Positions 1,643-15,794 of a stretch of 64,000 bases of DNA are shown here, in pieces (position 1 is the stretch's first letter; each line of letters begins with the position of its first letter). A model generated the notes under the pieces. The model saw nothing but the letters and a program-made list of their open reading frames with translations, had not been told where the DNA came from and did not search any database. The translations under genes and the position numbers were made by a program. The stretch covers positions 6,549,001 through 6,613,000 of the forward strand of contig NZ_AP026867.1 of assembly GCF_026000115.1 (NCBI RefSeq), read 5' to 3'. Origin of the DNA: Aureispira anguillae. GTDB taxonomy: Bacteria > Bacteroidota > Bacteroidia > Chitinophagales > Saprospiraceae.

Positions 1643-2080
1643 ATGACTTCCAAAACTTACCCCGTTACGGTTACAATTGGTCAAAATGGTTTTACTTCTG
1701 AGATAAAAGCAGGCAACCATAACTTAAAAGCAGACGAACCCACTGCTGTAGGTGGGAATGATTTAGGACCATCTCCTTATGATTTGCTGTTGTCTAGCTT
1801 AGGAGCTTGTACGGCAATGACTTTAAAAATGTATGCCAGTCGAAAAGGGTGGGACTTAAAAGAAGTTGTTGTTGAGTTGAGCCATTCCAAAGATTATTAT
1901 AAAGATTGTATGGATTGTGAGGAAACAGGGACAAAAGTCGATCTAATAGAACGACAAATCCACATCAAAGGAGATTTAGATGAAAAACAGTTGGAGCGAA
2001 TGATGAAGATTGCAGATAAATGCCCTGTGCACAAAACATTAACTAGCGAAACCATTATTAAGACGACTTTGGCAGAATGA
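1643..2080 (+). CDS. OsmC/Ohr-family peroxiredoxin-like protein
   Basis: 145 residues, the full length for the family. The two redox cysteines are present: one in LLSSLGACTAMTLKMYASRKGW (Cys56) and one in ADKCPVHKTL near residue 129, with the Gly-rich GPSPYDLLL just before the first. OsmC-family proteins reduce organic hydroperoxides or fatty acid peroxides with these two cysteines. An additional CMDCEE pair around residues 91-94 is unusual for classical Ohr and points to the broader OsmC subgroup. The stop overlaps the start of the next gene by 4 bp (ATGA), so they are translationally coupled. Confidence 0.85.
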   Translation: MTSKTYPVTVTIGQNGFTSEIKAGNHNLKADEPTAVGGNDLGPSPYDLLLSSLGACTAMTLKMYASRKGWDLKEVVVELSHSKDYYKDCMDCEETGTKVDLIERQIHIKGDLDEKQLERMMKIADKCPVHKTLTSETIIKTTLAE

Positions 2081-2463
2081 AATCAATTGGGTACTTAATT
2101 TTATTTGGATTATTAATAGCTTGTAAGGACAACCACCATTTTAATGAAAAATTAGTAGGTAAGTGGAAAATTTATAAGACGAGGTTAAATCAACGTGATA
2201 TTAGCAAAAGTGCTGATCCAAAGCATGAAAATGGTTTAGAATTTAAGGCAAATGGAGATTATCTTAGTTTTGGTAATGCTCGCCACCAAGGAAAAGGAAC
2301 CTACGAATTAAAAGGAGATCGTTTGCTGCTTAGGGACGCAGTAGAAAATGGAACCAATAGCGCAATGTTAAAGCTACAACAAGACACACTTTCCTTAGAA
2401 TTTTCTTTTGATAGCACCCAAGTTTTATCGTTGAGGCTTTATAGAATGAAAGAAGAACATTAA
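2077..2463 (+). CDS. Lipocalin-like small lipoprotein
   Basis: 128 residues with a lipoprotein signal (MKSIGYLILFGLLIACKD, acylated Cys at 16). After this comes a short beta-rich domain starting LVGKWKIYK, typical of the lipocalin-like or DUF4488-type lipoproteins of Bacteroidota. GTYELKGDRLLLRD fits the repeated beta-hairpin of that fold. No catalytic motif is seen. It is coupled to the OsmC gene by a 4-bp overlap and ends before a long hairpin. The function is unknown; a small-molecule binding or envelope role is a guess from the fold. Confidence 0.7.
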   Translation: MKSIGYLILFGLLIACKDNHHFNEKLVGKWKIYKTRLNQRDISKSADPKHENGLEFKANGDYLSFGNARHQGKGTYELKGDRLLLRDAVENGTNSAMLKLQQDTLSLEFSFDSTQVLSLRLYRMKEEH

Positions 2464-2469
2464 TCTAAA

Positions 2470-2512
2470 TGCCAATTTGAAAATAAACGAACAGCAGCTT
2501 TTCAAATTGGCA
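2470..2512. terminator. Bidirectional hairpin between convergent genes
   Basis: A perfect 14-bp inverted repeat (TGCCAATTTGAAAA at 2470-2483, its complement at 2499-2512, loop 15) lies between the lipoprotein gene (+) and the lanC-like gene (-). The A-rich arm ends let it work for both strands. Confidence 0.65.
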
Positions 2513-2520
2513 AATAGAAA

Positions 2521-3822
2521 TTATAGAACAGGCATTAGAGGGCTTTTTATCATTTCCTTAGACACTAATCGTAAGCAATGAATTCCTATGCCTGAATGTC
2601 CAACCATAATGCAAGGATTGTATCCACCAGCAACAATACCAGAAGGCATTGATAACTTATTTTTAAATTTTGCGATGTAATTAGAGCTTACCATTCTAGA
2701 AAATGCCATTAATTCTGGATGATTTAATTTTTGAGCATAACTAAAAATAATGTCTGACGACCCCAGTATTCCATGACATAAAGTAGCGTCTTTTTCTGGA
2801 TTGTTTTTTATGCGTTCTAGCACTGATCTTTGAGTTGTACGGATAGCGATATTTGCCATTTTTAAATGAAAATCACGCCGTTCTGTATCTAAAAATGCTG
2901 CTCGAAGATTGGCTAATGCAATACCTGGTGCGCCATGACACCAAGCTGTTCGGAAGGTGCCCCATATTTTACCATTGCGTTTTACCTGTGGGTATCTGGT
3001 ATCGATCCAGTTGCCTTCTTCATCATTAAATAGCGAATTTTCGAAAGCAAAAGCCCCTCTACCATAGCTAAGATAATTGGGATTGCCCGTGTGATGATAC
3101 ATTTCTAATAAGCCAACGGCAATTCCTGAAGCTCCATGAGAATATCCTGTTGTTGGGGGAGTATCTAATTCTACTCCATGAACCTTTGGCGAAGCCCAAA
3201 TACACATATCATCTTTCCATTTGCCCAAGTTAAGGAGCTCTTCAGCACAATCAATCGCCACTTTTTCAAAAATATCGAGTTGATACTTTCGTTTTAGTTC
3301 TAATAAGGGAGGGATAGCGCCTGCATTTCCACCTATAATATCCAATGAATGTTTGGTCTGGAGTCCTTGATCTAATTTAGAGCACAACCAATTTAATTGT
3401 GGGGTCAGTATATTGGCTAGCTCCTTAGCGATTTCCAAAAAGCGATAGCCAATGAATAAAAGCCCCAATTCTCCTGCGTAAAAAGAAATAGAAGAAGCGG
3501 GAAAATCATTGGTCTGCATATAATGAGCAGATCGCAACCAAGCACCTAAGGCAACCGCTTTGTAAGGTGGATGTTGGGTGATATGGAATAGCTCCATCAA
3601 AAAATAAGCAACGCCAGCAGTTCCACTATAAAACTCAGGGCTTAAGGCGGCGATTCTTTTGGAATATTTAGCGATTTGACGATCCTGTATGTCCCTAGCT
3701 CCTAACCAAGTACAGTAAGTCTCAGTGTTATCCCAAATGGCCGTTGATACTAAATGATCTCCAATTTCTTGTGCGACCTGTAGCAGCATTTTTTTATCTG
3801 TCTCTATTTGAACCGTTGTCAT
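2521..3822 (-). CDS. LanC-like lanthionine cyclase of the RiPP cluster
   Basis: 433 residues of the LanC alpha/alpha-barrel family. The zinc site is complete: WCHGAPGIA (Cys295, His296) and LCHGILGSS (Cys349, His350). GYSHGASGIAVGL (His229) matches the conserved histidine block, and a final MVGHSGIG lies near residue 407. LanC enzymes use zinc to activate peptide cysteines for Michael addition onto dehydroalanine or dehydrobutyrine, giving lanthionine rings. It is a free-standing cyclase with no dehydratase domain. It sits 3 bp after the HopA1-family gene, so the two are surely co-transcribed. Its substrate is inferred to be the four-core precursor at 6257-6601. A eukaryote-like LanCL role is unlikely given the neighbours. 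Confidence 0.88.
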   Translation of the reverse strand: MTTVQIETDKKMLLQVAQEIGDHLVSTAIWDNTETYCTWLGARDIQDRQIAKYSKRIAALSPEFYSGTAGVAYFLMELFHITQHPPYKAVALGAWLRSAHYMQTNDFPASSISFYAGELGLLFIGYRFLEIAKELANILTPQLNWLCSKLDQGLQTKHSLDIIGGNAGAIPPLLELKRKYQLDIFEKVAIDCAEELLNLGKWKDDMCIWASPKVHGVELDTPPTTGYSHGASGIAVGLLEMYHHTGNPNYLSYGRGAFAFENSLFNDEEGNWIDTRYPQVKRNGKIWGTFRTAWCHGAPGIALANLRAAFLDTERRDFHLKMANIAIRTTQRSVLERIKNNPEKDATLCHGILGSSDIIFSYAQKLNHPELMAFSRMVSSNYIAKFKNKLSMPSGIVAGGYNPCIMVGHSGIGIHCLRLVSKEMIKSPLMPVL

Positions 3823-3825
3823 GAT

Positions 3826-4872
3826 TTAATTTAAATTTAAGGCGTTTAAAAGTTGCTCATAATCGTTTAGCCCTACTATAGAACTGTAAGGATGAAAGGG
3901 ATGAATCCCCTGTTCGTAAAAAGTAGTATACATTTCGTGCGCTATTTCCTTTTTGGATCGTATGTCCATTTGGTAACAGTTGTATAGCGTATTTCCAATC
4001 ATTTCGGCTCTAGAAATACCAAAGCTCATCCCGTTTTGTGGGTCTTCTGCAAACGAAAAACCTTTACCTAAAGGCTTGGTAAAAAGTGGCGTTTTGTATT
4101 TTAGAAAGGGCTTGAGTTGGGTGTATATTTCGGTTAGAATTGGCAAAGCAGCAGTTAGTTGGCTTTTGTCAAGGTATAAAACCCCCGCATCTGGTCGATC
4201 ATAGCTTTGGGAATTGGATAATACTTTAGTTCTAAAACAAATAGATGCTGCATTTAATTGATGGGTGATCAATTTGATATACCTTATTGCGCCCTTAGGG
4301 GTTAGATTCCAATAAAAGCGAGTCAGTTGGTTTTCAAAATTTTCAATTTGCTCTTTGTTGATGTTGCCAAACGCCATATAAAAAGAAGTATTTAGATTTT
4401 TTACTTCTTTTCCAATTTTTACCAGACAAGGAGTGTTGGGAAGATAGCTGCCATTGCTGCTAATTACCTCATGAGCGGCCACCCAAAACTTAATATCTTG
4501 CTTGCTTACAATGATGTTGTCCGTATTCTGTTCTTTGCCCACAATAACCCATTTATCTTCCCAAGTTCCCGTTCCATTATTGGCTTTGGATAATTCAGAT
4601 AAGAAGGTGGTATGGTTTAAATCTTCTATAACATTATTATTTTGATCAACATCAGCTTTGTACAGTTGATTGTAAATATCTGTTTTGAGTATATTTTTGA
4701 AAAAGCTAGCCTTGTTGCTAGCTGTATTGGAGAGGACATCTCCATTATCTAGCTTTAATTTGATATTGGACAGATCTCTTAGAATGCCATTGATGCTATA
4801 GGTTGTCTCGCTTAATACATCAACTGCATTAACAACTTTTTGAATATCTTTATGGAGTGTATGTGGTCGCAT
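3826..4872 (-). CDS. HopA1-family protein, probable phospho-Ser/Thr lyase for RiPP dehydration
   Basis: 348 residues. The C-terminal ~190 residues match the HopA1 effector-like family as found in RiPP clusters: RFYWNLTPKGA, then YDRPDAGVLYL, then PLFTKPLGKGFSFAEDP followed by NGMSFGISRAEMI. The N-terminal ~150 residues are less conserved. In class V lanthipeptide and thioamitide pathways, a HopA1-type protein works with an APH-like kinase to remove phosphate from Ser/Thr and form dehydroamino acids. Here it lies between exactly such a kinase (upstream) and a LanC cyclase (3 bp downstream). The start at 4872 is the first ATG. The 15-mer AATACACGGAGTATT sits 24 bp upstream. The enzymatic role is inferred from the family and context. 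Confidence 0.85.
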   Translation of the reverse strand: MRPHTLHKDIQKVVNAVDVLSETTYSINGILRDLSNIKLKLDNGDVLSNTASNKASFFKNILKTDIYNQLYKADVDQNNNVIEDLNHTTFLSELSKANNGTGTWEDKWVIVGKEQNTDNIIVSKQDIKFWVAAHEVISSNGSYLPNTPCLVKIGKEVKNLNTSFYMAFGNINKEQIENFENQLTRFYWNLTPKGAIRYIKLITHQLNAASICFRTKVLSNSQSYDRPDAGVLYLDKSQLTAALPILTEIYTQLKPFLKYKTPLFTKPLGKGFSFAEDPQNGMSFGISRAEMIGNTLYNCYQMDIRSKKEIAHEMYTTFYEQGIHPFHPYSSIVGLNDYEQLLNALNLN

Positions 4873-4895
4873 AATATTAGTGTTTAGATATAAAA

Positions 4896-4910
4896 AATAC
4901 TCCGTGTATT
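4896..4910 (-). promoter_or_regulatory. 15-bp palindromic element upstream of the HopA1-family gene
   Basis: AATACACGGAGTATT, read on the minus strand (AATAC / GTATT arms), lies 24 bp before the start codon. An identical copy lies 27 bp before the kinase start. It is a candidate operator, or a leader element of the mRNA. Confidence 0.45.
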
Positions 4911-4922
4911 AGGCTGATTATT

Positions 4923-4974
4923 GCATGAGCTAGGTTGTCTAGGTTTTAATATTTGAATTGTTAAGTGCTCATGC
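4923..4974. repeat. Inverted repeat in the kinase-HopA1 gap
   Basis: GCATGAGC (4923-4930) and GCTCATGC (4967-4974) are perfect 8-bp arms around a 36-nt loop in the 129-bp gap. It may be an mRNA structure that separates expression of the two genes. It is weak alone. Confidence 0.3.
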
Positions 4975-5001
4975 GGTTGTTAGGCAATCTAATATGATTT
5001 T

Positions 5002-6108
5002 TTACGGAGTACTGTTAGCTATTCCAAATAATTTTTCTTGGGACAACAGCGGCTTTCTAATGATACTTTTACCCATATTTAGAAGAAGCTGAGCAATGGA
5101 TGGAATGGCATCAAATTTTGAGGCTATTTCAAAGGACGTTTGCAAGACTCTAAAACCAGAAAATAAGACCACTCGTTCTAATAATTGCTGGCGAGCGTTT
5201 GTTGTTAGGCCTATGGTATTGCAATAACTTTCCCAATAACTATTAATGGCAGGAGTTAATAAATGAAATGGGAAACGAGCTTTTTGTATCATCTCTTCAG
5301 GCGATAAGTTATCGGGCATAGAAATTACCCACCAAAAGATAAAATCATTAAAAACGCCTGCTACATCCCATGCTGTATCCCCAATTTGAGCCATTTCCCA
5401 GTCCACTAATTTGATCGAATTAGCTGTCTTATTTTGAGGGTCGAGCACAATAAAATTGTCCAATTTAATATCACCATGAATTACTGCATTTTCTTGCCAC
5501 AAGGAAGGAATCTTATTAAAAGCAAGCATCAAATCGGTATGAGATTGTAGGTGTTTAATAAAGGCATATCCTCCGCCACTGATATAAGATAATCGACTGG
5601 GATGGGGCTTGTGCAGGTTTAAAATAAATGGCAAGTCTCGGTTTAAGAAAGATAATTGGGGGGCATTAATTACTTCTTTTTTTGAAAAGGTTAAATGCAG
5701 GTGGGCTAATAACTTTCCTATTGTTTTGGGGACATTTAGGGGAAAATGGTGAATCGTTTTTTCATTATAATATTTCCATAGTGGCATTGCTTCTTTGTAG
5801 AAGGTCATGACAAGAATAATATCGTTGGTATCAACATATTTAACTTCGGGGAGATATTTTTCTAACAGTGGGAATTTTTGATCGAAATATTGATAAAATT
5901 GAGCTTCTCTTTTTAAGGTTGTTGCATTTTCTGCATTCTTATCGGCAACTTGCTTAATTAAAAAATTGCTATCGTTAAGCGTTGTAATTTGAATGTTTTG
6001 GTTGCGTCGGTTGATACTTGTGGCTTCAAAATCTTCAAATACAATTGTATTCTTATCCAATAGTTGTTGGTCTAACAAAAAATCCTGTATGGTATCAATG
6101 CTATACAT
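5002..6108 (-). CDS. APH-fold phosphotransferase, probable RiPP Ser/Thr kinase
   Basis: 368 residues of the aminoglycoside phosphotransferase / choline kinase fold. The catalytic loop is VIHGDIKLDNF (His211, Asp213, Asn218) and the metal-binding motif is KLVDWEMAQIGDTAWDVAG (Asp236). The N-lobe holds NFLIKQVADKN with the likely ATP-binding Lys52 and a Glu in KREAQFYQYF. In class V lanthipeptide and thioamitide clusters, this kinase phosphorylates Ser/Thr of the precursor and the HopA1 partner then eliminates the phosphate. The next gene downstream is that HopA1 partner and the gene upstream is the precursor. Drug-resistance or sugar-kinase roles are possible for the fold but do not fit the location. 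Confidence 0.85.
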   Translation of the reverse strand: MYSIDTIQDFLLDQQLLDKNTIVFEDFEATSINRRNQNIQITTLNDSNFLIKQVADKNAENATTLKREAQFYQYFDQKFPLLEKYLPEVKYVDTNDIILVMTFYKEAMPLWKYYNEKTIHHFPLNVPKTIGKLLAHLHLTFSKKEVINAPQLSFLNRDLPFILNLHKPHPSRLSYISGGGYAFIKHLQSHTDLMLAFNKIPSLWQENAVIHGDIKLDNFIVLDPQNKTANSIKLVDWEMAQIGDTAWDVAGVFNDFIFWWVISMPDNLSPEEMIQKARFPFHLLTPAINSYWESYCNTIGLTTNARQQLLERVVLFSGFRVLQTSFEIASKFDAIPSIAQLLLNMGKSIIRKPLLSQEKLFGIANSTP

Positions 6109-6134
6109 AATAATAATATTGGGTGTTAAAAGTT

Positions 6135-6149
6135 AATACTCCGTGTATT
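6135..6149 (-). promoter_or_regulatory. 15-bp palindromic element upstream of the kinase gene
   Basis: Same AATACACGGAGTATT as before the HopA1-family gene, here 27 bp ahead of the kinase start. The match continues a few bases outside the palindrome (GGCT on the plus strand). Confidence 0.45.
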
Positions 6150-6197
6150 GGCTCGTGGACTAGGCTTTGAGTGATTTCTTATGAAATAATGAAAAGT

Positions 6198-6226
6198 TGA
6201 AGAGTAACCCTTTTGATTACTCTTCA
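6198..6226 (-). terminator. Attenuator-like hairpin after the precursor gene
   Basis: A perfect 10-bp stem (TGAAGAGTAA / TTACTCTTCA, loop 9) lies 31 bp downstream of the precursor stop. The minus-strand sequence that follows is only moderately T-rich. A partial terminator would give more precursor than enzyme mRNA. Confidence 0.45.
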
Positions 6227-6256
6227 TGATTATCCTCCAGATTAGTTGAGAACTAA

Positions 6257-6601
6257 TTATGTTGTACAACCAGTAGTGGCTACCAAAATCCAACAACAAT
6301 CATCTGACGGTTTTGCGTTAGATAAAGTGTTTGAATTAATATCATCGGTAGAACAACCAGTAGTTGCCAAAACAATCCAACAACAATCGTCGTGGACAGC
6401 TTGTTTAGCAGCTAAGGAATCACTAGTTGATACTGCTTGTGCTAATGTAGAACAACCAGTAGTAGCTACAACAATCCAACAACAATCATCATCAGAGTTA
6501 CTTGAAGCCTTTTGGCTTGCGGTGACGGTTGCGGCATCGGTAGAACAGCCAGTAGTGGCTACAACAATCCAACAACAATCATTTTGAGAATTTTTGCTCA
6601 T
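6257..6601 (-). CDS. Multi-core RiPP (lanthipeptide-like) precursor with four core repeats
   Basis: 114 residues. Four copies of a 14-residue unit, DCCWIVVATTGCST or near it, lie at residues 8-21, 39-52, 72-85 and 101-114, and the last one ends at the stop codon. Copies 1 and 2 are identical, copy 3 has VL for VV, and copy 4 has ILV and ends CTT. The 15-19 residue linkers between them are Ser/Ala/Asp-rich and share no clear sequence. Only seven residues (MSKNSQN) precede the first core, so there is hardly a leader. Each core has three Cys, three or four Thr/Ser and one Trp, the right chemistry for (methyl)lanthionine rings. The gene heads a minus-strand set of kinase, HopA1 and LanC genes, which is the basis for the call. 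The opposite-strand frame is also open but has no such logic. Confidence 0.85.
   Translation of the reverse strand: MSKNSQNDCCWIVVATTGCSTDAATVTASQKASSNSDDDCCWIVVATTGCSTLAQAVSTSDSLAAKQAVHDDCCWIVLATTGCSTDDINSNTLSNAKPSDDCCWILVATTGCTT
6260..6301 (-). repeat. RiPP core repeat 4 (C-terminal)
   Basis: Encodes DCCWILVATTGCTT, residues 101-114, ending directly at the stop codon. This is the most diverged copy (I-L for I-V, final T-T for S-T). Confidence 0.8.
6347..6388 (-). repeat. RiPP core repeat 3
   Basis: Encodes DCCWIVLATTGCST, residues 72-85, with one conservative change (V to L) from copies 1 and 2. Confidence 0.8.
6446..6487 (-). repeat. RiPP core repeat 2
   Basis: Encodes DCCWIVVATTGCST, residues 39-52. 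Identical to copy 1 in protein but with silent base differences, so the copies are not fresh duplicates. Confidence 0.8.
6539..6580 (-). repeat. RiPP core repeat 1
   Basis: Encodes DCCWIVVATTGCST, residues 8-21, after a seven-residue N-terminus. Confidence 0.8.
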
Positions 6602-6924
6602 GATTAATTATGTATTATGTTCCTACTCTATTTAAAACAGGCTTTTCGGGGGCGCCTTTGTAATCAAAAGGGATAATAGCTATTTCATCGAATACTTGCT
6701 TTGGATTACAAATACAAATATTATTGTTTTAGTGGATAGAAACTAGGGTATAATTGCCTGTTTAATAAAATAGAGTAGAATTACTTAATAGGTTGATAGC
6801 TAGTTTTTTAAATATTTTTTTGTAAGGTTCTAGCTTGAGGTAGGATATAAAAAGATCATCTTTGTATGTGAATTTATACAAAGGAAAACTGGCTAAGAAG
6901 AGACTATAGAGAGGCAGGAGTAAT
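6602..6924. other. Region upstream of the RiPP precursor
   Basis: 323 bp, AT-rich, between the ADP-ribosylglycohydrolase stop and the precursor start. The RiPP promoter must lie here. No perfect TAnnTTTG box was found, only TATTTG-like runs around 6705-6725 on the minus strand. A 63-codon open frame (6762-6953) is not supported as a gene. Confidence 0.35.
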
Positions 6925-7926
6925 TTAATTTTTTGGAGCAAATTGTCGAGCAAGTTCTTTCAAATAAGATAGCCCTTCTACTTGTTCTAACATAAAGGAT
7001 GGAAGACTATCTAGTCCCATAGAACCTGCCAAAATACCAGTAGTAATAGCGGCAATAGAATCTACGTCTCCACCTAAATAAATAGATTTTTGAAGCGCAT
7101 CAAATGCACTAGTACTGTGTTTGAGTACATAAAGAACGGCTCCTGCTGTGTATTTAGAATCAGAGGGAACTCCTTTTATTCCAGGCAAAAAATAGGGCGC
7201 TTGTATGGGTTGCTCTCCACAGAGTATGTTAAAGTCAGAGGGCTGTAGTTTTTCATAAACTCCCAAAGCATCTACGGCTATTAGATACGCTTTATATTCT
7301 TCATTAAATGCGATGGTTTGCAGGCAATAGTTGACTAATTGAGCAGGATCTCCTTTTTTGATCAACAAAAATTCGCTTGCTCTGGCAATGCATTGACTGG
7401 CTAGAATGGCGTTAATATTGGGGTGAGTTGCATTGGCATTAATAGCAGCATAAGAATTGATGAGGTCAGGATGAATTAGCCCTAAAGGAACTGCTCGCAT
7501 TGCAGGGGCATTGCCAGGGTTAGCCCTATCTCTTTGAAAATTTTGGATTTCTTTTATTGTTTTTTCCCCAGAAAAATACCAACTCATAGAGCCATGCCCA
7601 TTTCTACCATAGCCTTTTTCGAATATCCCCTTATTGTATTCTTCTTCCCATTTTTGAATCAATAAAGCTTCCGAAAAAGGTTCTGGAGCCATCAAAGCTT
7701 TGAGTAACCCAATTGTCATTTCAGTATCATCGGTATAGTCCCAAGGAGTATAATTAGTCGTGAATAGGGATTTTTGATGTTCTGGCACAGAGATCATGGC
7801 TCTAGCATTGACAAAACATGAAAAGTCTACTTTTTCTCTGATCCAATCTCTATCTTGGAATTCTACCCCAGCCCCAAAAGCATCGCCAATGGCTATTCCA
7901 ATTAATAGTTCGCTAATGTTCATCAT
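6925..7926 (-). CDS. ADP-ribosylglycohydrolase (DraG/ARH) family protein
   Basis: 333 residues, full length for the family. The metal-binding motifs are all present: IAIGDAFGAGVEF (residues 11-23), DYTDDTEMT (63-71), an ATHP turn at 166-169 and GGDVDSIAAI (285-294). Enzymes with these motifs use two magnesium ions to remove ADP-ribose from arginine, other residues or small molecules. Which substrate is used here cannot be told. The start overlaps the 3' end of the upstream alpha/beta hydrolase gene by 14 bp, so the two form an operon. The stop lies 323 bp before the RiPP precursor. A link to the RiPP cluster is possible but not shown. Confidence 0.88.
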   Translation of the reverse strand: MMNISELLIGIAIGDAFGAGVEFQDRDWIREKVDFSCFVNARAMISVPEHQKSLFTTNYTPWDYTDDTEMTIGLLKALMAPEPFSEALLIQKWEEEYNKGIFEKGYGRNGHGSMSWYFSGEKTIKEIQNFQRDRANPGNAPAMRAVPLGLIHPDLINSYAAINANATHPNINAILASQCIARASEFLLIKKGDPAQLVNYCLQTIAFNEEYKAYLIAVDALGVYEKLQPSDFNILCGEQPIQAPYFLPGIKGVPSDSKYTAGAVLYVLKHSTSAFDALQKSIYLGGDVDSIAAITTGILAGSMGLDSLPSFMLEQVEGLSYLKELARQFAPKN

Positions 7927-8827
7927 GGCTGTTTTGTGGATTCATAATTAAGCTTTCAATGCTTCTATTCATTTCTTGAGATTGAACATGAAGAGAAGGA
8001 TCTAATAAGATCGTCTTTTTTAGAGAGGGAAAGATTTTTTTTGCTCTTTTTAACATTTTAAGCCCAGGAAACATAAGGTCTTGTTTGGCTGCAATCAGTG
8101 TTATGGGCGTTTCAATACTTTTTGCTTCCGTTGTTTTTATCGTAGGAACAGGTGAAAAGTCCATTTTAAAATGCATAAAAACCTTGGCTAAAAACTGAAG
8201 GGCAAATGCATCTTTTTCAGAAAATAAGGTACTCAAAAATTTGTTGAGATAATGGCTCTTTTTGGTCAACAAATATAATTTCATAGGAATAAAAACTTTA
8301 GCCATTAATTTTAGAGGATTGCCATTAACAATATAAGCAGGAGCAGTCAAAAAAACTTCCTTGATGTTGCGCTCGTTTTGAATCAGTGTTTTTAAAATAA
8401 TAAGACCGCCTAGAGAGAATCCCACCAACGTAACATCTTTTAAGGCTAATTGATTGATTGTTTGATTGAGCCATAGCCCATAAGATTGGTCTTTCATGCT
8501 TAATCGAGTTTCTGCACTTTTGTTGGGTTGTGCAAGAACATCAACCGCAAAAACCTGATATTGTTTACTCAAGTTGGGATATACCTCTAGTGCAATAGGG
8601 GCACAGCCATTGGAGCCATGCACCAAAACCAAAGGAGGCTTGCTTGGTGCACCTGTTACAATAACGTGTGTTGTACCAAAATCTGTTTCAACGAACTGAC
8701 TGTTATATTGGATGGAAAGTTGTTCGAGTTTTTGTTGGTAAAGCGCTAAGATCTCTTTTTTGTGCTTAGGACTTGTATATAAGGAATTCATGAGCAATAA
8801 AAATTTGTATTGATGAACAAAATTCAA
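7913..8827 (-). CDS. Alpha/beta-hydrolase fold protein
   Basis: Up to 304 residues. An in-frame ATG at 8791 (MNSLYTSPKHKKEI) may be the true start, since the first 12 residues look like leader sequence. Motifs: LVHGSNG oxyanion region, nucleophile elbow VGFSLGGLI, a candidate Asp in LIAAKQDLMFPG and a late LHVQSQEM histidine. The substrate cannot be predicted. It overlaps the ADP-ribosylglycohydrolase gene and is divergent from a TetR gene. The shared 60-bp intergenic region holds two exact 18-bp repeats, so TetR control is likely. Confidence 0.8.
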   Translation of the reverse strand: MNFVHQYKFLLLMNSLYTSPKHKKEILALYQQKLEQLSIQYNSQFVETDFGTTHVIVTGAPSKPPLVLVHGSNGCAPIALEVYPNLSKQYQVFAVDVLAQPNKSAETRLSMKDQSYGLWLNQTINQLALKDVTLVGFSLGGLIILKTLIQNERNIKEVFLTAPAYIVNGNPLKLMAKVFIPMKLYLLTKKSHYLNKFLSTLFSEKDAFALQFLAKVFMHFKMDFSPVPTIKTTEAKSIETPITLIAAKQDLMFPGLKMLKRAKKIFPSLKKTILLDPSLHVQSQEMNRSIESLIMNPQNSHDEH

Positions 8828-8887: not shown

Positions 8888-9516
8888 TGAAAAATACAAA
8901 GCAAAAAATAGCAGATACGGCTAGAAAGTTATTTAATATTCATGGATATGGGCAGGTTACTTTGCGAATGATTGCGAATGATTTGGGGATGAGTTGTGGC
9001 AATCTGAACTACCATTTTAAGAAACGGGAAGATATTTTAGAGGTGTTATATTTTGAGATGGTGGCTGTGTTTGACCAAAGGGTGCTTGAATTGCCACAGC
9101 AAAAAATTTCGATGTCCTTAATTTACCAAGAAGTTCGAACTAGTATGCAACGAATGATAGCGTATCGTTTTTTCTGGACAGATATTTATAATCTATTAAG
9201 GACGAGTCCCAATATAAAAAAGCATTTTCAGCAGGTTTACGAACAGCGGATAAAAGGCTATTTGTATTTATTTGCCGAACTAAGGAAAGAGGGGTTATTA
9301 AAAACGCCCGCTTATAAAAATGAAGATCAATTTATAGGAAAACAGATGGTACATTTTAGCAATACATGGCTATATGGGATGGTACTTTATGCCAATGATT
9401 TTGGAGACGAAATACTTGAAGAAAATGTATCAAATCTTCTGGGCTTATTATATCCTTACTTAACGGCTAAAGGGCAAGAAGCATTGCAGTCTTTGGTTGC
9501 TTATTTGAAGGGGTAA
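8887..9516 (+). CDS. TetR/AcrR-family transcriptional regulator
   Basis: 209 residues. The N-terminal DNA-binding domain is typical: IADTARKLFNIHGYGQVTLRMIANDLGMSCGNLNYHFKKREDILEVLY over residues 8-56. The C-terminal ligand domain (residues ~60-209) has no recognisable signature and is longer than the helix core, with several aromatic residues. It is divergent from the alpha/beta-hydrolase and ADP-ribosylglycohydrolase operon and directly abuts the repeated 18-mer. It therefore most likely represses itself and that operon. The ligand is unknown. Confidence 0.85.
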   Translation: MKNTKQKIADTARKLFNIHGYGQVTLRMIANDLGMSCGNLNYHFKKREDILEVLYFEMVAVFDQRVLELPQQKISMSLIYQEVRTSMQRMIAYRFFWTDIYNLLRTSPNIKKHFQQVYEQRIKGYLYLFAELRKEGLLKTPAYKNEDQFIGKQMVHFSNTWLYGMVLYANDFGDEILEENVSNLLGLLYPYLTAKGQEALQSLVAYLKG

Positions 9517-9558
9517 TAATGTTATGATTTGGAGCAGAAAACGGCATTATAATAAAAA

Positions 9559-9978
9559 TTAAGAAGGAATATAAGTCATAAATATTTCAGGTGATTCCAA
9601 GGGCTTGAAACCTACTTTTTGATAGAGGGCATGTGCATCTTGCGTTCCAAGCATCCATTTTTTGACCTTATTGAGTTGTGGGTCTTGCAGTATAGCATTA
9701 ACTAAGGATAGCCCTAAGCCTTGTCCCCTGTAAGATTCCAAAATAAAAACATCCATTATATAGGCAAAAATAGCGCAATCGGAAACAACTCTAGCAAAAC
9801 CTATTTGTTGGTTTTCATGATAAACACCAAAGCAGAAAGAGTTTTTAATGCTGGCTTCTACTGTTTCAATGGTTCTACCTTTTGCCCAGTAACTTTGTTT
9901 TAAGAAAGTATGAATCATCGAAACATCAAGGCGTTCTTTATTGGTAGAAATAGAGATGTCGGGAGGTAAAGCAATCAT
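9559..9978 (-). CDS. GNAT-family N-acetyltransferase
   Basis: 139 residues. The acetyl-CoA binding motif is VFILESYRGQGLGLSLVNAIL (residues ~77-97), preceded by a FGVYHENQQIGFARVVSD beta-hairpin. Short GNATs of this kind often act on small molecules; the substrate is not predictable. It sits 6 bp downstream of batB, so it may be the last gene of the Bat operon transcript. It is convergent with the TetR gene. Confidence 0.78.
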   Translation of the reverse strand: MIALPPDISISTNKERLDVSMIHTFLKQSYWAKGRTIETVEASIKNSFCFGVYHENQQIGFARVVSDCAIFAYIMDVFILESYRGQGLGLSLVNAILQDPQLNKVKKWMLGTQDAHALYQKVGFKPLESPEIFMTYIPS

Positions 9979-9984
9979 AAATAA

Positions 9985-11004
9985 TTATTTTTCGTTTAGC
10001 CATTTACTCTTTCGGTAACTAATAAAGAATTCTACAATGAGTAAAATTAGAGCAAAAGCAACAAAAATCTGGAAATACGTTTCATAAACATCAAAATCTT
10101 GTTGTTCAAATTCTGTCTTTTCCAATTTAGACATTTTATGCTCCAATCTAGCGATAATAGCATCTACTGATGTACTTGCATCGTAAAAATTTCCACCACC
10201 ACTAGCTGCAATATTTTTGATCAAATCCGTATTCATTTTGCTATGGACAACCTGACCGCTTTTGTCCAATTGAAATTCAGAACGTCCTGAATTTTTGATT
10301 GGAATCGGGGCGCCATTTTCTGTCCCAACGCCAATGATAAAGGTTGTGACACCTTGAGCCTTGGCCGCTTTTGCAGCATCAACAGCATTTAGTTCGTGGT
10401 TTTCACCATCGGTAATAACAACCAAAGCCCGCTGTTTTTTTTCTTCCTCTTTCGCTCCTAACTCAACCACCAAGTCGATCGCCGATTCAATGGCTGTACC
10501 TTGTGTAATATCTAGTTTAGGGCTAGCCGTCTGAATGAATAATTGAGCAGCAGCATAATCTGTTGTTAAAGGCATTTGTAAATAGGGATGTCCTGCAAAT
10601 AGAATCAGCCCAACTCGATCCCCTCGAACTGCCGTTACCAATTTTTGAGCAAACTGGCGAGCACGTTCCATGCGATTGGGCTTGAGGTCTTCCGCCCACA
10701 TACTTCTAGAAACATCCAAGGCAATAAAAATATCAACCCCTTCTCGTTTAACCGATTGAGTTTTGTTGCCGAGACGAGGATTGGCCATTGCAATCACCAA
10801 AAAGGCAAAGGCAAACATAATAATGCCAAATTTTAGCGGTCGCTTAAGCCTAGAGATATTGGGAGCGAGCCGCTCTAAACCTAGTAATGCACCAAAATGT
10901 TCTCGTAGTTTATTATTGTGCAAGGTAATGGCAATAAACAAAGCTATGAGTACTGGTATGCAAAAAAGCAAATAAAAATAATTGGGTTGTTCAAAATGGA
11001 ACAT
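9985..11004 (-). CDS. batB: BatB-type von Willebrand factor A membrane protein
   Basis: 339 residues. Two N-terminal membrane helices (residues ~8-28 and ~58-76) and one C-terminal helix (~307-328) flank a periplasmic or cytoplasmic VWA domain with an intact MIDAS (DVSRSMWAED, then TDGENHE). This is the aerotolerance-type Bat arrangement. It follows the BatA-type gene by 2 bp and shares its layout. Bat proteins are linked to stress tolerance and envelope integrity, and MoxR-type ATPases may assemble or activate them; the mechanism is not settled. The A/B assignment rests on gene order. Confidence 0.8.
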   Translation of the reverse strand: MFHFEQPNYFYLLFCIPVLIALFIAITLHNNKLREHFGALLGLERLAPNISRLKRPLKFGIIMFAFAFLVIAMANPRLGNKTQSVKREGVDIFIALDVSRSMWAEDLKPNRMERARQFAQKLVTAVRGDRVGLILFAGHPYLQMPLTTDYAAAQLFIQTASPKLDITQGTAIESAIDLVVELGAKEEEKKQRALVVITDGENHELNAVDAAKAAKAQGVTTFIIGVGTENGAPIPIKNSGRSEFQLDKSGQVVHSKMNTDLIKNIAASGGGNFYDASTSVDAIIARLEHKMSKLEKTEFEQQDFDVYETYFQIFVAFALILLIVEFFISYRKSKWLNEK

Positions 11005-11006
11005 GG

Positions 11007-12008
11007 TTATACTATAGTTTTGAATAAGGTATTGGCTAATAAAACTTGTAAGAAAACAAATAGGATAGCGACAAAAACGAAAATATGGTATTTCTCCTGA
11101 TAGTTTCGGATGGTGGTGGTTTCTATTTTTGTACGCTCCAGTTGATCAATTTTTGCATAAATAGCTTTGAGTTGATCCATGTCTTGTGCTCTAAAATATT
11201 CACCTCCAGTTTCATTCGCAATTTTCTTGAGCAAATTCTCATCAATTTGTACAATAGACCAGTCGTAAATAAACGTTCCATTTGGACGTTGAGCCACTGG
11301 TGTTCGAGCTTGTCCTTTGGTTCCAACACCAATGGTGTAGACTTTTATGCCTAGTTTTTTGGCAGCATCGGCAGCCTGCATAGGAGAAGCATAACCAGAA
11401 TTGTTGACCCCATCCGTCAAAAGAATGATAATTTTAGATTTTGCTGTACTCTCTTTTAGGCGTTTGGTTGCATTGGCCAAGCCCATTCCTATAGCAGTAC
11501 CATTTTCGATTAAACCGCATTGCAAGGTAGCTAAAAAGGAGCGCAATATATTGTGATCGGTCGTTAATGGACATTGCGTAAAACTTTCGCCAGCAAAAAC
11601 AATTAGCCCAATTCTATCGTGTTTACGCTGAGCGACAAAATCAGAAGCCACCATTTTGGAAGCTTCTAGACGATCAGGCTTAAAATCTTTGGCAAGCATG
11701 GAGGTAGAAACATCCATTGCTAGCATAATATCAATTCCCTCAGCATTGACATTCTCTTTTTTTAGAACCGCCTGTGGGCGAGCAATTGCAATAATAAGGG
11801 CTGTAATTGCTAATAATTGCAAGAGTTGCACGAGTGGACGTGCTTTGATTTTCCAACTCTGTGGTCCTGATAATCCCTGCGTTGAAGACATGCGGACATC
11901 CGCAAAATATTCATCTTGTTTATTGTAGTACCACCAAGCCATAAAAGGTACAATGACCAATAGACCCAATAGATAAGGATTTGCAAATTCTATTCCTCCA
12001 AATGACAT
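11007..12008 (-). CDS. batA: BatA-type von Willebrand factor A membrane protein
   Basis: 333 residues. It begins MSFGGIEFANPYLLGLLVIVPFMAWWYY, the standard BatA N-terminus, with a second helix near residues 60-80 and a C-terminal helix near 310. The VWA domain has the MIDAS motif DVSTSMLAKDF and LLTDGVNNSG. It is paired with the following batB-type gene, 2 bp apart. The region between the stop of the upstream BatD-like gene and this start is 27 bp. Role: a membrane-anchored metal-ion adhesion domain, presumably a scaffold acted on by the MoxR ATPase encoded first in this operon. Confidence 0.82.
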   Translation of the reverse strand: MSFGGIEFANPYLLGLLVIVPFMAWWYYNKQDEYFADVRMSSTQGLSGPQSWKIKARPLVQLLQLLAITALIIAIARPQAVLKKENVNAEGIDIMLAMDVSTSMLAKDFKPDRLEASKMVASDFVAQRKHDRIGLIVFAGESFTQCPLTTDHNILRSFLATLQCGLIENGTAIGMGLANATKRLKESTAKSKIIILLTDGVNNSGYASPMQAADAAKKLGIKVYTIGVGTKGQARTPVAQRPNGTFIYDWSIVQIDENLLKKIANETGGEYFRAQDMDQLKAIYAKIDQLERTKIETTTIRNYQEKYHIFVFVAILFVFLQVLLANTLFKTIV

Positions 12009-12035
12009 ATAATTGCGCTATTATAGTTTTAATCG

Positions 12036-12989
12036 TTAATTGCTTACTTGTTTGGCTTCTTCTTCTAGTATTGCTTGGATTGAATGAATCAACTCAAAAC
12101 AGAGGCTAAGCGCTTTTTTATTGGCAATATCTAAAGGAGATGCCTTGGCATATTTAATCAAATCAGCATGCTCTAGAACCGTTTTAAATTCGTCATACAA
12201 TGATTTTTTTAGCAAATAGTGCCCTTTTATCTTGGGCATAAATTCACTGGTAGGTCGTTCTAGTGCCTTGATTTTGAAACGCCCATTGATATAGGTTCTT
12301 AAAATCAATGATATGCTGGTGTGATATTCTTTGGTTTTGTTTTGTTCCAAGAAGTTATTGGCTTCTAAGGCAGCCAACTGTTCGAGTGCAATTTCTTCTG
12401 CGGTCTTTGGGACAATCGCTTTTGACCGTTTCTGGCGTTGCGTAAAGACATAAAAAGCAAGAAAGGCTAGAGCAAGCATGAGCAGCGCAAGCACAACAGG
12501 ATGCGTAAAAAAAGAATATAAATGATCTAAAAAGTTGGCTTCTTCTGCCAAAATTGTCTTAATATCTGCGACATAAGTACTATCTCCTGTAACCTCTGGT
12601 GCTAAGACCGTAAGCATTAGCGGTGCTGATTTTATCTCAACGGTTGTTTTGTTTTTGGGATAGGAAAAAACCAGCTCTGGAATTTGATAAGAGCCAGGTT
12701 CCCAAGCCGTCAAAAGAATTGTTTGTTGATAAGTATCATTTACATCCCCTTGAATTAAGGTAGATTTTTGCTGATCAATTAATTCTAACTTTTCTTTGTC
12801 TAATAGATCATTTATTGTAGGAAACGAAAAAGGAGTACCCGCAGGAACATTAACCACCAATTGCATGCTGACCTGATCGCCAATCAAAAAAGATGTACTG
12901 TCCATAAAAATATTAGCCTGCCCATTGCCTTGGGCACAAAGCCCCCAAGAATAAATGACCAACAATAGATATAAATAGTGTTTTAGCAT
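12036..12989 (-). CDS. BatD-like secreted/membrane protein
   Basis: 317 residues. Signal peptide MLKHYLYLLLVIYSWGLCAQ, then a beta-rich periplasmic domain (residues ~25-135, with WEPGSYQIPELVF resembling the oxygen-tolerance BatD repeats), one membrane helix (~165-183) and a helical cytoplasmic tail (~200-317). This is the usual third partner of BatA/BatB in Bacteroidota operons, here placed before batA rather than after batB. No enzymatic motif is seen. It is 2 bp from the DUF58 gene upstream. Confidence 0.68.
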   Translation of the reverse strand: MLKHYLYLLLVIYSWGLCAQGNGQANIFMDSTSFLIGDQVSMQLVVNVPAGTPFSFPTINDLLDKEKLELIDQQKSTLIQGDVNDTYQQTILLTAWEPGSYQIPELVFSYPKNKTTVEIKSAPLMLTVLAPEVTGDSTYVADIKTILAEEANFLDHLYSFFTHPVVLALLMLALAFLAFYVFTQRQKRSKAIVPKTAEEIALEQLAALEANNFLEQNKTKEYHTSISLILRTYINGRFKIKALERPTSEFMPKIKGHYLLKKSLYDEFKTVLEHADLIKYAKASPLDIANKKALSLCFELIHSIQAILEEEAKQVSN

Positions 12990-12991
12990 CT

Positions 12992-13861
12992 TTAGCTTCG
13001 TCTTTCTTTAAAGAATTTTATTAAAATACTCAAATAGGGCTGATTGGTAGCCACGCTCATTACATCAGCATTATTGCGTAAGAATGTTTTCTTAAAATAA
13101 TCCAGATTGTTATGATACCAATTGTTATAGTTATTTCGAACGGCTTCAGAAGAAGTGTCTACCCAATTGGTCTGTCCTGTTTCGGCATCTATCATTGGCA
13201 ACAAGCCAACATTCGGCATTTCAACCTCTAAAGGATCATAGATATGAATGCCAATGGTATCGTGTCTATTGGCTGCCAGTTTGATGGCATTATTATAGTC
13301 TTGGCACATAAAATCAGAAAGGACAAAAGCGGTACAACGTTTACTAATAATATTGGTTAAATACTTTAGAGGTTCATTGAGATTGGTTTTAGCTTGACTT
13401 GGTTTGGCATAAATCATATCCCTAAGAATGCGTAGAATATGCGCTTTTCCTTTTTTGGGGGGAATGAAGTTTTCCACTTTGTCAGAGAAAAATATAGCTC
13501 CTACTTTGTCATTATTGGCACTTGCCGAAAAAGCTAAGGTTGCTGCAATTTCAGTGGCAATTTCCATTTTATTTTGATAGGTAGTGCCAAAAAAGGCAGA
13601 ACCACTAACATCTATTAATAACATAAATGTCAATTCTCGTTCCTCTTCAAATACCTTGACATAAGGCTCATTGGTACGAGCGGTAACATTCCAATCAATA
13701 TTTCGAACATCATCTCCATACTGATATTGACGAACCTCACTAAAAGACATGCCTCGCCCCTTAAATCGGGTTTTGTAAGTACCCGAAAACACTTGGTTGG
13801 ACAAGCCCCTCGTTTTGATTTCTATTTTACGAACTTTTTTTAGTAATTCTTTTATCGTCAT
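12992..13861 (-). CDS. DUF58-domain protein
   Basis: 289 residues. The DUF58 core is clear: GRGMSFSEVRQYQYGDDVRNIDWNVTARTNEPYVKVFEEERE (residues ~35-76) followed by a VWA-like strand with LLIDVSGSAFFG. DUF58 proteins almost always accompany a MoxR ATPase, as here. No membrane helix is seen, so it is cytoplasmic. The gene is separated by 30 bp from the paralogous membrane protein pair upstream, and it abuts the BatD-like gene. Confidence 0.85.
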   Translation of the reverse strand: MTIKELLKKVRKIEIKTRGLSNQVFSGTYKTRFKGRGMSFSEVRQYQYGDDVRNIDWNVTARTNEPYVKVFEEERELTFMLLIDVSGSAFFGTTYQNKMEIATEIAATLAFSASANNDKVGAIFFSDKVENFIPPKKGKAHILRILRDMIYAKPSQAKTNLNEPLKYLTNIISKRCTAFVLSDFMCQDYNNAIKLAANRHDTIGIHIYDPLEVEMPNVGLLPMIDAETGQTNWVDTSSEAVRNNYNNWYHNNLDYFKKTFLRNNADVMSVATNQPYLSILIKFFKERRS

Positions 13862-13891
13862 AAATATATAAGTACCAGCACTTGGTCGATT

Positions 13892-14557
13892 TTAAAAAAT
13901 AAAAAATACGACTGCTAAGTTGATAGCAGCAATAATAAAAAAGTTAGTTAGAGAAGGTTGCGCTAATTCACTCATTTTAGCATCTAACAATTCAAATACA
14001 TTTTGAGTAATTCGCTCTTTTACTACTTCTTTCTCGCCACCTTGTTGATATTGTTCCGTAATTAGTATAATAATGTCTTTAATGGTAGTAACAATGCCTA
14101 AACTGTTGGTAATAAAATCAGGAATTTTATCCCAAAGCGAACTGGTTTCAGCATCAAATTCTTCTTGAATTTTCTCACTGGTTATGGGGCTATCATCATT
14201 GATGATTCTATTCAAAATACCTGCAATTATATTGGCAGCAACAGGGCGAATGATCTCTTGGTAAACCTCAAAAACAATTACGAGTTGCCCATAAACATAA
14301 GCGGTATAGGCGTAGGCAGCAGGAAATACCAAAATTAGTATTACCAAACTAAACAAAAGCATGCTCCAGCTTACGACTGAAAAATAGCCCATTAAAAAGA
14401 CAAGTGCTAAAATCCAATTGATAAGCACACCAGAGCCAATCAAAAAAAGCACAGAAAAAGACGAAAGGGCTTTTTTGATTAGTGCCCAAGGCTTTATTTG
14501 CTGCTCAATTTTTTCTATTGCAACATTGATTTCATTTTCTTCAGTAGACATAGGCAC
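13892..14557 (-). CDS. Hypothetical membrane protein, paralogue 2 of a tandem pair
   Basis: 221 residues and a clear paralogue of the gene just upstream. The shared blocks are ALIKKALSSF, a Gly-rich IGSGVLINWILALVFLMGYFSVVSW, then PAAYAYTAYVYGQ, IRPVAA and a C-terminal SELAQPSLTNFFIIAAINLAVVFFIF. About three or four membrane helices are expected, with an amphipathic stretch around residues 125-195. I do not recognise a family. Its position within the MoxR-DUF58-Bat operon suggests it serves that complex. The start could be residue 3 (MSTEEN). Confidence 0.68.
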   Translation of the reverse strand: MPMSTEENEINVAIEKIEQQIKPWALIKKALSSFSVLFLIGSGVLINWILALVFLMGYFSVVSWSMLLFSLVILILVFPAAYAYTAYVYGQLVIVFEVYQEIIRPVAANIIAGILNRIINDDSPITSEKIQEEFDAETSSLWDKIPDFITNSLGIVTTIKDIIILITEQYQQGGEKEVVKERITQNVFELLDAKMSELAQPSLTNFFIIAAINLAVVFFIF

Positions 14558-14567
14558 GTAGGGAGGA

Positions 14568-15233
14568 TTAGAATAAAAAATATAAAGTAATTAAATTGAC
14601 TGCCGCAACAATATAAAAGGGGATTAAAGAAGGCTCCATTAATTCAGACATCTGTAAATCTAAAGACTCAAAAAAACTGTGCATGGCTTTTTGCTTTACA
14701 GCTTCTTTTTCTGCTCCTGATTGTCGTTGGGCTTTTACAATTTTTATAATGTCTCCACTGGTAAAGAAAATCTGAAAGTAAGCACGGATAAAATCGGGCA
14801 GTTGCTCCAAAAAATGTTTTTTTCGCTCTTCGACTTCCTTAACAATTTTACTTTCATTTACTTCGCTAGCCTCTTCGGGATTATCTACTAAGAAAGAATC
14901 TAAGGTTCGGCTGAATACCTTGGCTGCAATCGGACGAATGCCTTCTTTGTAGGCTTCCCAAAACAAAACAGATTGCCCGTAAGAATAGGCAAAAAACAAA
15001 TAAAGAGCAGGAAAGATTAAAATCATCAATAGTAGCCCAAGGATAAACCACAACCAAGAAGTAGCACTAAAGTATCCCACTAAAAAAACAACTGCCATAA
15101 TCCAATTGATGACAAATCCTGCCCCAATCATAAGGACAATAAAAAAAGAAGACAATGCCTTTTTTATTAATTTTAAGGGGCTGCTAAACGCTTCCAGTTG
15201 TTTTATTTCATCTGTATATAAATCCTCATTCAT
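14568..15233 (-). CDS. Hypothetical membrane protein, paralogue 1 of a tandem pair
   Basis: 221 residues, the same length as the following gene and sharing its whole layout: LIKKALSSFFIVLMIGAGFVINWIMAVVFLVGYFSATSW near the N-terminus, PALYLFFAYSYGQ, IRPIAAKVF, then a charged middle and SELMEPSLIPFYIVAAVNLITLYFLF at the end. The duplication is old, since identity is moderate and the gap is 10 bp. Membrane topology and operon position are the only clues to function. It is separated by 3 bp from the GNAT gene upstream. Confidence 0.68.
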   Translation of the reverse strand: MNEDLYTDEIKQLEAFSSPLKLIKKALSSFFIVLMIGAGFVINWIMAVVFLVGYFSATSWLWFILGLLLMILIFPALYLFFAYSYGQSVLFWEAYKEGIRPIAAKVFSRTLDSFLVDNPEEASEVNESKIVKEVEERKKHFLEQLPDFIRAYFQIFFTSGDIIKIVKAQRQSGAEKEAVKQKAMHSFFESLDLQMSELMEPSLIPFYIVAAVNLITLYFLF

Positions 15234-15236
15234 AAT

Positions 15237-15791: not shown

Positions 15792-15794
15792 CGA

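What the first reader, a model, noticed from the sequence alone, without database searches (positions are those of the whole stretch)
2521..6601. Class V-type lanthipeptide cluster in a Bacteroidota genome
Seen: a Cys/Ser/Thr-rich multi-core precursor, an APH-fold kinase (HGD and DWE motifs), a HopA1-family protein and a LanC with the full zinc site lie in order on one strand within 4.1 kb. Known: kinase + HopA1 is the dehydration pair of class V lanthipeptides and thioamitides, described mainly from actinomycetes. Inference: this is a class V-like pathway with a separate, complete LanC cyclase, from an unexpected phylum. Whether others have reported this pairing I cannot check.
Basis: partly seen in the sequence, partly recalled or inferred. 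Interest (0 to 1): 0.95.

Follow-up and report, generated by a model that had tools for sequence, protein, structure and literature searches.

The report
Four-core thioether peptide gene cluster
A bacterium outside the usual antibiotic-making groups carries a compact set of four genes that very probably turns one protein, holding four copies of the same short sulfur-rich peptide and no guide segment, into ring-locked peptides.

Summary
On the minus strand at 2521-6601 lie a 114-aa precursor with four near-identical 14-residue cores, an APH-fold kinase, a HopA1-family lyase and a LanC with all zinc ligands. The catalytic residues studied in CaoY are conserved, and the predicted HopA1 fold matches LxmY of the lexapeptide dehydratase best. 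This is a class V-type lanthipeptide pathway with a LanC cyclase. That pairing is already known as class Vb (SmoA/SmoC), so it is not new. New: (i) the system recurs in Bacteroidota: 12 of 398 sampled genomes of the window's family hold HopA1, and the 11 others show kinase-HopA1-LanC in order; no paper opened here names this; (ii) precursors are multi-core, which a July 2026 paper calls unreported for lanthipeptides; (iii) the window's precursor has no leader: the open frame is 116 codons. An Aliiroseovarius plasmid has the same four-gene layout with a leaderless three-core precursor. The site is variable: a congener keeps both flanks with other genes between. Product and activity are untested.

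The parts
6257..6601 (-). Multi-core precursor, 114 aa, no leader (7 residues before the first core; open frame of 116 codons in all)
6539..6580 (-). Core 1, residues 8-21, DCCWIVVATTGCST
6446..6487 (-). Core 2, residues 39-52, DCCWIVVATTGCST
6347..6388 (-). Core 3, residues 72-85, DCCWIVLATTGCST
6260..6301 (-). Core 4, residues 101-114, DCCWILVATTGCTT, ends at the stop codon
6198..6226 (-). Terminator-like hairpin (12-pair stem, T-rich tail) between precursor and kinase; possible attenuator that makes precursor outnumber enzymes
   Evidence: the count (1 found, 3.8 expected in shuffles) is not above chance, the position is what suggests it
5002..6108 (-). LanK-type kinase, APH fold; Lys52, His211/Asp213 (HGD), Asn218, Asp236/Glu238 (DWE)
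3826..4872 (-). LanY-type (HopA1-family) phosphoSer/Thr lyase; Arg185, Lys216, Arg226, Tyr233
2521..3822 (-). LanC-type cyclase; Zn ligands Cys295, Cys349, His350; His229, Asp161
4896..4910 (.). 15-nt repeat AATACTCCGTGTATT in the kinase-HopA1 gap, role unknown
6135..6149 (.). Second copy of the 15-nt repeat, in the precursor-kinase gap
2464..2518 (.). Inverted repeat (20-nt arms, 90% complementary) between the convergent lanC and lipocalin-like genes; likely end of the operon
   Evidence: I2
6657..6712 (.). Inverted repeat (14-nt arms) upstream of the precursor; possible regulatory site
   Evidence: I14; no TAnnTTTG promoter motif found in the 329 bases upstream

Best explanation
The four genes are a minimal class V-type (Vb-like) lanthipeptide pathway. 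The kinase phosphorylates Ser/Thr in each of four repeated cores, the HopA1-family lyase eliminates phosphate to give Dha/Dhb, and the zinc LanC adds Cys thiols to make (methyl)lanthionine rings. The conserved T-x-G-C in each core most likely forms one MeLan ring (residues i, i+3); the two N-terminal Cys probably add to the downstream Thr/Ser in the reverse direction. The precursor carries no leader, so the enzymes probably recognise the core-spacer unit itself (about 0.65), and four near-identical products are later cut out by a protease encoded elsewhere (about 0.6). Shown here: genes, residues, fold class, conserved gene order, repeat structure, absence of a leader. Inferred: the chemistry, ring pattern, recognition mode and cleavage. 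The confidence below is for the class V chemistry acting on this precursor; the first two rivals are variants within it.
For: Families. HopA1 residues R185/K216/R226/Y233 correspond to CaoY R187/K219/R229/Y236, with spacings 31/10/7 against 32/10/7; of these, K219, R187 and R229 were mutated in PMC9486802. Those residues are conserved in 8 of 8 rows and 19 of 19 loci. The HopA1 model (pLDDT 83.5) matches LxmY chains best (8.8e-18) and the effector at 3.6e-9. The kinase profile's best solved relative is 9dk1_A, 2e-18, an LxmKY entry by its title, and the best NCBIfam model is LxmK (4.9e-24). LanC Cys/Cys/His conserved in 19 of 19. Kinase-HopA1-separate LanC order in 17 of 20 Bacteroidota loci from 18 genomes. 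The precursor's open frame is 116 codons, so no in-frame leader is possible. A leaderless three-core precursor with two cores of the pattern CVSVxFTAGC[ST] and one CGKVMFTAVCS lies ahead of the same three genes in Aliiroseovarius.
Against: No leader is found, whereas lanthipeptide precursors typically have one (PMC9486802). The kinase scores 85 bits against NCBIfam's LxmK cut-off of 315, and the HopA1 protein has no NCBIfam match. The fold match has moderate TM-scores (0.57) and a large rmsd (9-10). No dedicated protease or transporter gene was seen next to the cluster. No expression or product data exist. The window's enzymes sit on long branches without a firm sister.
Confidence: 0.82

Rival explanations
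1. The precursor is modified but never cut: the product is a secreted, thioether-stapled repeat protein (four ring-locked hairpins on polar linkers), a structural or adhesive material rather than a set of small peptides.
For: No dedicated protease seen beside the cluster and no leader to remove; related clusters encode large, Cys-rich repeat proteins, up to 1119 aa with 89 Cys in L118, and 468 aa with 44 Cys and only 8 charged residues in L005.
Against: Five related clusters begin with a protease gene: L005, L014 and L127 by Pfam (subtilase), L015 and L105 by likeness read in the ORF lists; this points to processing there. An alpha/beta hydrolase two genes upstream of the window's precursor just passes the Hydrolase_4 (S33) cut-off (27.6 against 27 bits), so a nearby peptidase cannot be excluded. 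Spacers are unlike each other, as expected of discarded linkers.
Confidence: 0.15
2. A leader works in trans: the leader-domain protein of the second cluster in the same genome (L005 14175-14663) guides modification of the window's precursor.
For: That domain occurs as its own gene beside repeat precursors that lack it in L005, L014 and L105; the genome search found one match to it.
Against: The two clusters' kinases and HopA1 proteins are only 24% and 25% identical; the Aliiroseovarius cluster has the same leaderless layout with no leader-domain hit in its 16.6-kb locus.
Confidence: 0.1
3. The enzymes act on a different substrate and the repeat ORF is a chance neighbour or decaying gene.
For: The precursor has no database family above a cut-off and no second copy in the genome.
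Against: Four conserved Cys/Thr-rich cores, position directly before the kinase, and the same position and a like core pattern in a plasmid of another phylum.
Confidence: 0.05
4. A thioamitide-like or class Va pathway (AviMeCys, thioamides) rather than LanC-type rings.
For: The same kinase/HopA1 pair starts those pathways (PMC9486802).
Against: No LanD flavoprotein and no second kinase-like LanX among the eight proteins scanned, and a complete LanC is present, which class Va clusters lack (PMC12291118).
Confidence: 0.03

Closest known systems
Class Vb lanthipeptides: SmoA with cyclase SmoC (Pei et al. 2022; known here only through passages of PMC12328550 and PMC12291118, the paper itself is not held)
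   Same: Kinase LanK, HopA1-family lyase LanY and LanC cyclase
   Different: The review places class V in actinobacteria, names an orthologue SpcC from Streptomyces pathocidini and speaks of its leader; here Bacteroidota, leaderless, four cores in one precursor
Class Va lanthipeptides: lexapeptide (LxmKYX), cacaoidin (CaoKYX), pristinin A3
   Same: Kinase and HopA1 dehydratase pair; the catalytic residues; closest solved structures 9dk1-9dk3 (LxmKY)
   Different: Class Va has LanD and LanX, AviMeCys and no LanC (PMC12291118)
Aliiroseovarius crassostreae plasmid cluster (L012, L106)
   Same: Leaderless tandem cores CVSVAFTAGCTF / CVSVLFTAGCSF / CGKVMFTAVCSV, then kinase, HopA1, LanC in the same order
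   Different: Three cores, one Cys fewer per core, 23%, 20% and 29% identity for kinase, HopA1 and LanC
Relatives in the window's family and in Flavobacteriaceae genomes (L005, L014, L105, L118-L128)
   Same: Kinase-HopA1-LanC order; where a precursor was seen, Cys/Thr-rich and often repetitive
   Different: Mostly much longer precursors, often with a globular leader domain or a separate leader-domain gene, some with a protease gene

Membership tests
Class V lanthipeptide pathway | Standalone APH-family kinase LanK (PF01636) | tested here: met
   4.8e-10 against Pfam; HGD, N and DWE residues in 19 of 19 loci; best solved relative is the LxmKY kinase chain
Class V lanthipeptide pathway | Standalone HopA1-family lyase LanY (PF17914) with CaoY catalytic residues | tested here: met
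   2.3e-36; R185, K216, R226, Y233; fold nearest to LxmY
Class Vb subgroup | LanC cyclase with zinc site | tested here: met
   7.7e-48; C295, C349, H350 in 19 of 19, H229 in 19 of 19, D161 in 18 of 19 loci
Class Vb subgroup | No LanD/LanX (AviMeCys) genes | tested here: met
   No such family among the four cluster proteins and four neighbours scanned; other ORFs to 12 kb only read by eye
NCBIfam NF038156 (LxmK equivalog) | Score above 315 bits | tested here: not met
   85.1 bits, best hit but below the cut-off: a relative of LxmK, not an LxmK orthologue
Lanthipeptides in general | Precursor with N-terminal leader and C-terminal core | tested here: not met
   7 residues before core 1, four cores; open frame 116 codons; leader-domain profile finds only the second cluster's copy in the genome
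Lanthipeptides in general | Product contains lanthionine or methyllanthionine | not testable with these tools
   Needs mass spectrometry or NMR

The most novel reading that the evidence does not exclude
Leader-free, multi-core lanthipeptide biosynthesis: class V enzymes that read a repeated core-spacer unit instead of a leader, present in two phyla (this genome and an alphaproteobacterial plasmid; one origin or two is not resolved), with related Bacteroidota clusters making long ring-stapled repeat proteins that may act uncut as extracellular material.
Probability: 0.2. Interest if true: 0.88.

Novelty: new variant of a known kind. Interest (0 to 1): 0.62.

Why it matters
Multi-core precursors are stated to be unreported for lanthipeptides (PMC13343206, 2026, passage seen), and leader-guided recognition is the usual rule (PMC9486802). 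A four-gene, leaderless, four-core system would be a compact tool for making ring-locked peptides and a direct test of how class V enzymes choose substrates. The recurrence in one Bacteroidota family points to a body of class Vb clusters with unusual giant precursors, while a 2025 review still places class V in actinobacteria only (PMC12328550).

Tried and rejected
Rarity: a phylum sample (1 of 395, own genome included) and an order sample (1 of 198, own included) first suggested the system was unique to this genome. A denser family sample found it in 12 of 398, own included, so that reading was dropped.

Effector origin of HopA1: rejected, since the nearest fold and profile match is LxmY.

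Viral carriage: one scan of viral contigs found no relative. A first genome-contig scan with the window's HopA1 alone found none; a wider alignment did.

Second precursor copies in the genome: none. Precursor search in plasmids gave two Aeromonas records at 2e-6 and one Arthrobacter record at 2; the Aeromonas matches lie antisense to annotated hypothetical genes in conjugation regions with no kinase, HopA1 or LanC gene annotated in the stretches shown; treated as spurious, not examined further.

Structure of the precursor alone: pLDDT 40.8, uninformative. RNA families at 2000-8000: none. Promoter motif TAnnTTTG: none in the 329 bases upstream. G681's weak HopA1 hit (22 bits) gave no hit to my profiles and was dropped. 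L015 was left out of the residue census and concatenated tree because its genes are broken or masked; L007, L018 and L102 because they lack a separate LanC.

The core motif (three or more copies) was written after seeing the window and Aliiroseovarius precursors; the third hit (L014, Kordia) is independent of that choice, with a threshold of two, added one more (L118, seven matches). The L105 precursor was not scanned for it.
Full report
What is there. The four reading frames exist as described, on the minus strand: precursor 6601-6257, kinase 6108-5002, HopA1 4872-3826, LanC 3822-2521. Pfam assigns APH (4.8e-10), HopA1 (2.3e-36) and LANC_like (7.7e-48); the precursor has only matches below cut-off. 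The precursor reads MSKNSQN, then four cores of 14 residues (DCCWIVVATTGCST twice, DCCWIVLATTGCST, DCCWILVATTGCTT) with spacers of 17, 19 and 15 residues that do not resemble each other; 11 of 14 core positions are identical in all four, and the protein ends at the last core residue. The whole open frame is 116 codons, so an earlier start could add at most a residue or two. There are 12 Cys, all in cores, and 32 Ser/Thr, 16 of them in cores. A hairpin followed by a T-rich stretch lies between precursor and kinase (6226-6198); its count is not above shuffles, so the attenuator role is inference from position. An inverted repeat separates lanC from the convergent lipocalin-like gene.

Are the enzymes active in principle? 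PMC9486802 (parts of the text read) reports that CaoY K219A loses and R187A nearly loses lyase activity, that R229Q is inefficient, and notes Y236. The window's HopA1 protein has R185, K216, R226, Y233 at matching spacing (31/10/7 against 32/10/7), invariant in 8 of 8 aligned rows, itself included, and in 19 of 19 loci. The kinase has Lys52 (8 of 9 rows by eye; the ninth, Runella, is truncated), HGD, N and DWE. The LanC has C295, C349, H350 and H229 in 19 of 19 loci and D161 in 18 of 19, the other having Glu. The names of the zinc ligands and the roles of H229 and D161 by comparison with NisC are recalled, not from a call.

Which relatives are nearest? A model of the HopA1 protein (20-row alignment, mean pLDDT 83.5) matches the three lexapeptide dehydratase LxmKY entries best (chain B, 8.8e-18 to 6.9e-17), then effector HopA1 (3.6e-9 and 4.0e-7); class III synthetases follow only at 0.07 or worse. 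TM-scores are moderate (0.57) and rmsd is 9-10, so the domain arrangement may differ. By sequence profile the same LxmKY lyase chain leads (8e-29 against 2.7e-5 for the effector), and its kinase chain leads for the kinase (2e-18). NCBIfam's LxmK model is the kinase's best hit but far below its cut-off (85 against 315 bits), and the HopA1 protein has no NCBIfam match.

How widespread is it? A scan of one genome per species gave 105 relatives, of which 80 were kept: by title 76 cyanobacterial and 4 Bacteroidota loci. A kinase hit occurs in 80 of 80 (in L035 and L048 contig ends cut the picture). Among the 76 cyanobacterial loci none has a standalone LanC hit; six show LanC hits only in ORFs of 1071-1080 aa, LanM-sized. 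The cyanobacterial plasmids L009 and L010 have an aldo/keto reductase after HopA1 instead. In plasmid records, 12 hold HopA1 relatives; seven were opened and an eighth later. Aliiroseovarius has kinase-HopA1-LanC in the window's order; Deinococcus and Pseudonocardia have HopA1 fused to LanC. In Bacteroidota I examined 20 loci from 18 genomes (window, L005, L007, L014, L015, L018, L085, L102, L105, L118-L128): kinase upstream of HopA1 in 20, separate LanC after it in 17, fused in 1 (L102, weak), absent in 2 (L007, L018). Genome censuses with PF17914, own or centre genome included: phylum 1 of 395, order 1 of 198, own family 12 of 398, Kordia's family 4 of 299, of which two were already known and one is marginal. 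The family code is unnamed; that it is Saprospiraceae is inference from L085, a named Saprospiraceae assembly that groups with the family member L119 at 100/99. That the host is Bacteroidota is inferred from this and from a type IX secretion tail beside the second cluster. The genus name was only guessed (Aureispira) for one literature search.

The same genome has a second, distant cluster (L005): protease, leader-domain protein (162 aa), a 468-aa ORF with 44 Cys and 13 AQAQ-type repeats, kinase, HopA1, LanC. Kordia (L014) and G755 (L105) share that layout. The leader domain (alignment A6) has no Pfam family and no convincing solved relative. It recurs in L119 (two ORFs), L121 (two), L122, L123 and weakly L125, with Cys-rich tails where I read them. 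The window's cluster lacks it, and the genome search gave only the L005 copy.

The leaderless layout is not a one-off. Aliiroseovarius carries an 80-aa precursor (annotated start; 92 aa from an upstream start) with three tandem cores, CVSVAFTAGCTF, CVSVLFTAGCSF and CGKVMFTAVCSV, and Ala/Ser-rich spacers, directly before kinase, HopA1 and LanC; a second strain has the same precursor protein accession. Of 9153 ORFs in 94 sequences three have three or more copies of C-x(4,7)-T-x(1,2)-C-[STA]: the window's, this one and the Kordia repeat ORF; among the 11 further loci one more, the 1119-aa ORF of L118, has seven. The pattern was chosen after seeing the first two. T-x-G-C occurs four times in the window's precursor, twice in Aliiroseovarius and five times in Kordia and is the most likely MeLan ring.

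History. Trees place the window's HopA1, kinase and LanC on long branches without a firm sister; the concatenated tree leaves it in an open fork with Aliiroseovarius and 14 Bacteroidota rows, a set supported 99/98 that leaves out one family member, L125. None of the 8 same-genus genomes listed has HopA1. Two of them keep the OsmC side and the ADP-ribosylglycohydrolase side; in the one whose ORFs I listed (L149) the lipocalin-like gene is kept and a MarR-type regulator, a type IX-sorted protein and two small ORFs lie where the cluster is in the window. I read the cluster as an accessory element at a variable spot.

Literature. Class V lanthipeptides are divided into Va (LanX, LanD, no LanC) and Vb (LanC) in PMC12291118 (introduction read; passages). 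PMC12328550 (passages) credits the first class V LanC to SmoA/SmoC and says class V has only been found in actinobacteria. PMC7794033 (passages) reports the gene pair in Actinobacteria and Firmicutes and distant homologues in Cyanobacteria, Planctomycetes and Proteobacteria; PMC9486802 reports putative precursors from cyanobacteria. PMC7268733 (passages) found many class I lanthipeptide clusters in Bacteroidetes, so lanthipeptides as such are not new there. PMC13343206 (passages) says multi-core precursors have not been reported for lanthipeptides. Searches for Bacteroidota with class V, for Aureispira with lanthipeptide, for multi-core lanthipeptides and a listing of the 36 held papers since 2023 naming class V lanthipeptides showed no title or opened passage describing this system; most listed papers were not opened, and most subscription papers are not held.

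Verdict. The finding is real and correctly read as class V chemistry with LanC. It is not a new class. Its worth lies in the leader-free multi-core precursor and in the spread of such clusters in Bacteroidota, for which I found no report. Chemistry, ring pattern, cleavage and activity remain inference.

Noticed in passing
L005 (G000:C1:484001-504000) 9118-16258: Second class Vb-type cluster in the same genome with a protease, a leader-domain protein and a 468-aa, 44-Cys repeat precursor.
   Followed up: partly
L118-L128: Eleven further genomes of the window's family carry kinase-HopA1-LanC, some with giant repeat precursors, up to 1119 aa and 89 Cys in L118.
   Followed up: partly
A6 rows; L119, L121, L122, L123, L105: A conserved leader-like domain without any Pfam family, found from Bacteroidota to Deinococcus and Paracoccus.
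   Followed up: partly
window 1643-7926 against L149 and L150: Congeners keep both flanks of the cluster; in L149 a MarR-type gene, a type IX-sorted protein gene and two small ORFs lie in between instead: a variable spot.
   Followed up: partly
window 4896-4910 and 6135-6149: A 15-nt repeat AATACTCCGTGTATT in both intergenic gaps that flank the kinase; the only two exact copies in 64 kb.
   Followed up: no
L008, L011, L102: HopA1 and LanC fused in one protein in Deinococcus, Pseudonocardia and, weakly, a Cytophagales assembly.
   Followed up: partly
L009, L010: Cyanobacterial plasmid kinase-HopA1 pairs lack LanC and are followed by an aldo/keto reductase and, further on, a peptidase-type or bacteriocin-type ABC exporter.
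   Followed up: no
L007 7995-9755: Runella rosea plasmid HopA1 gene is broken over several frames and its kinase is short; probably a remnant.
   Followed up: no
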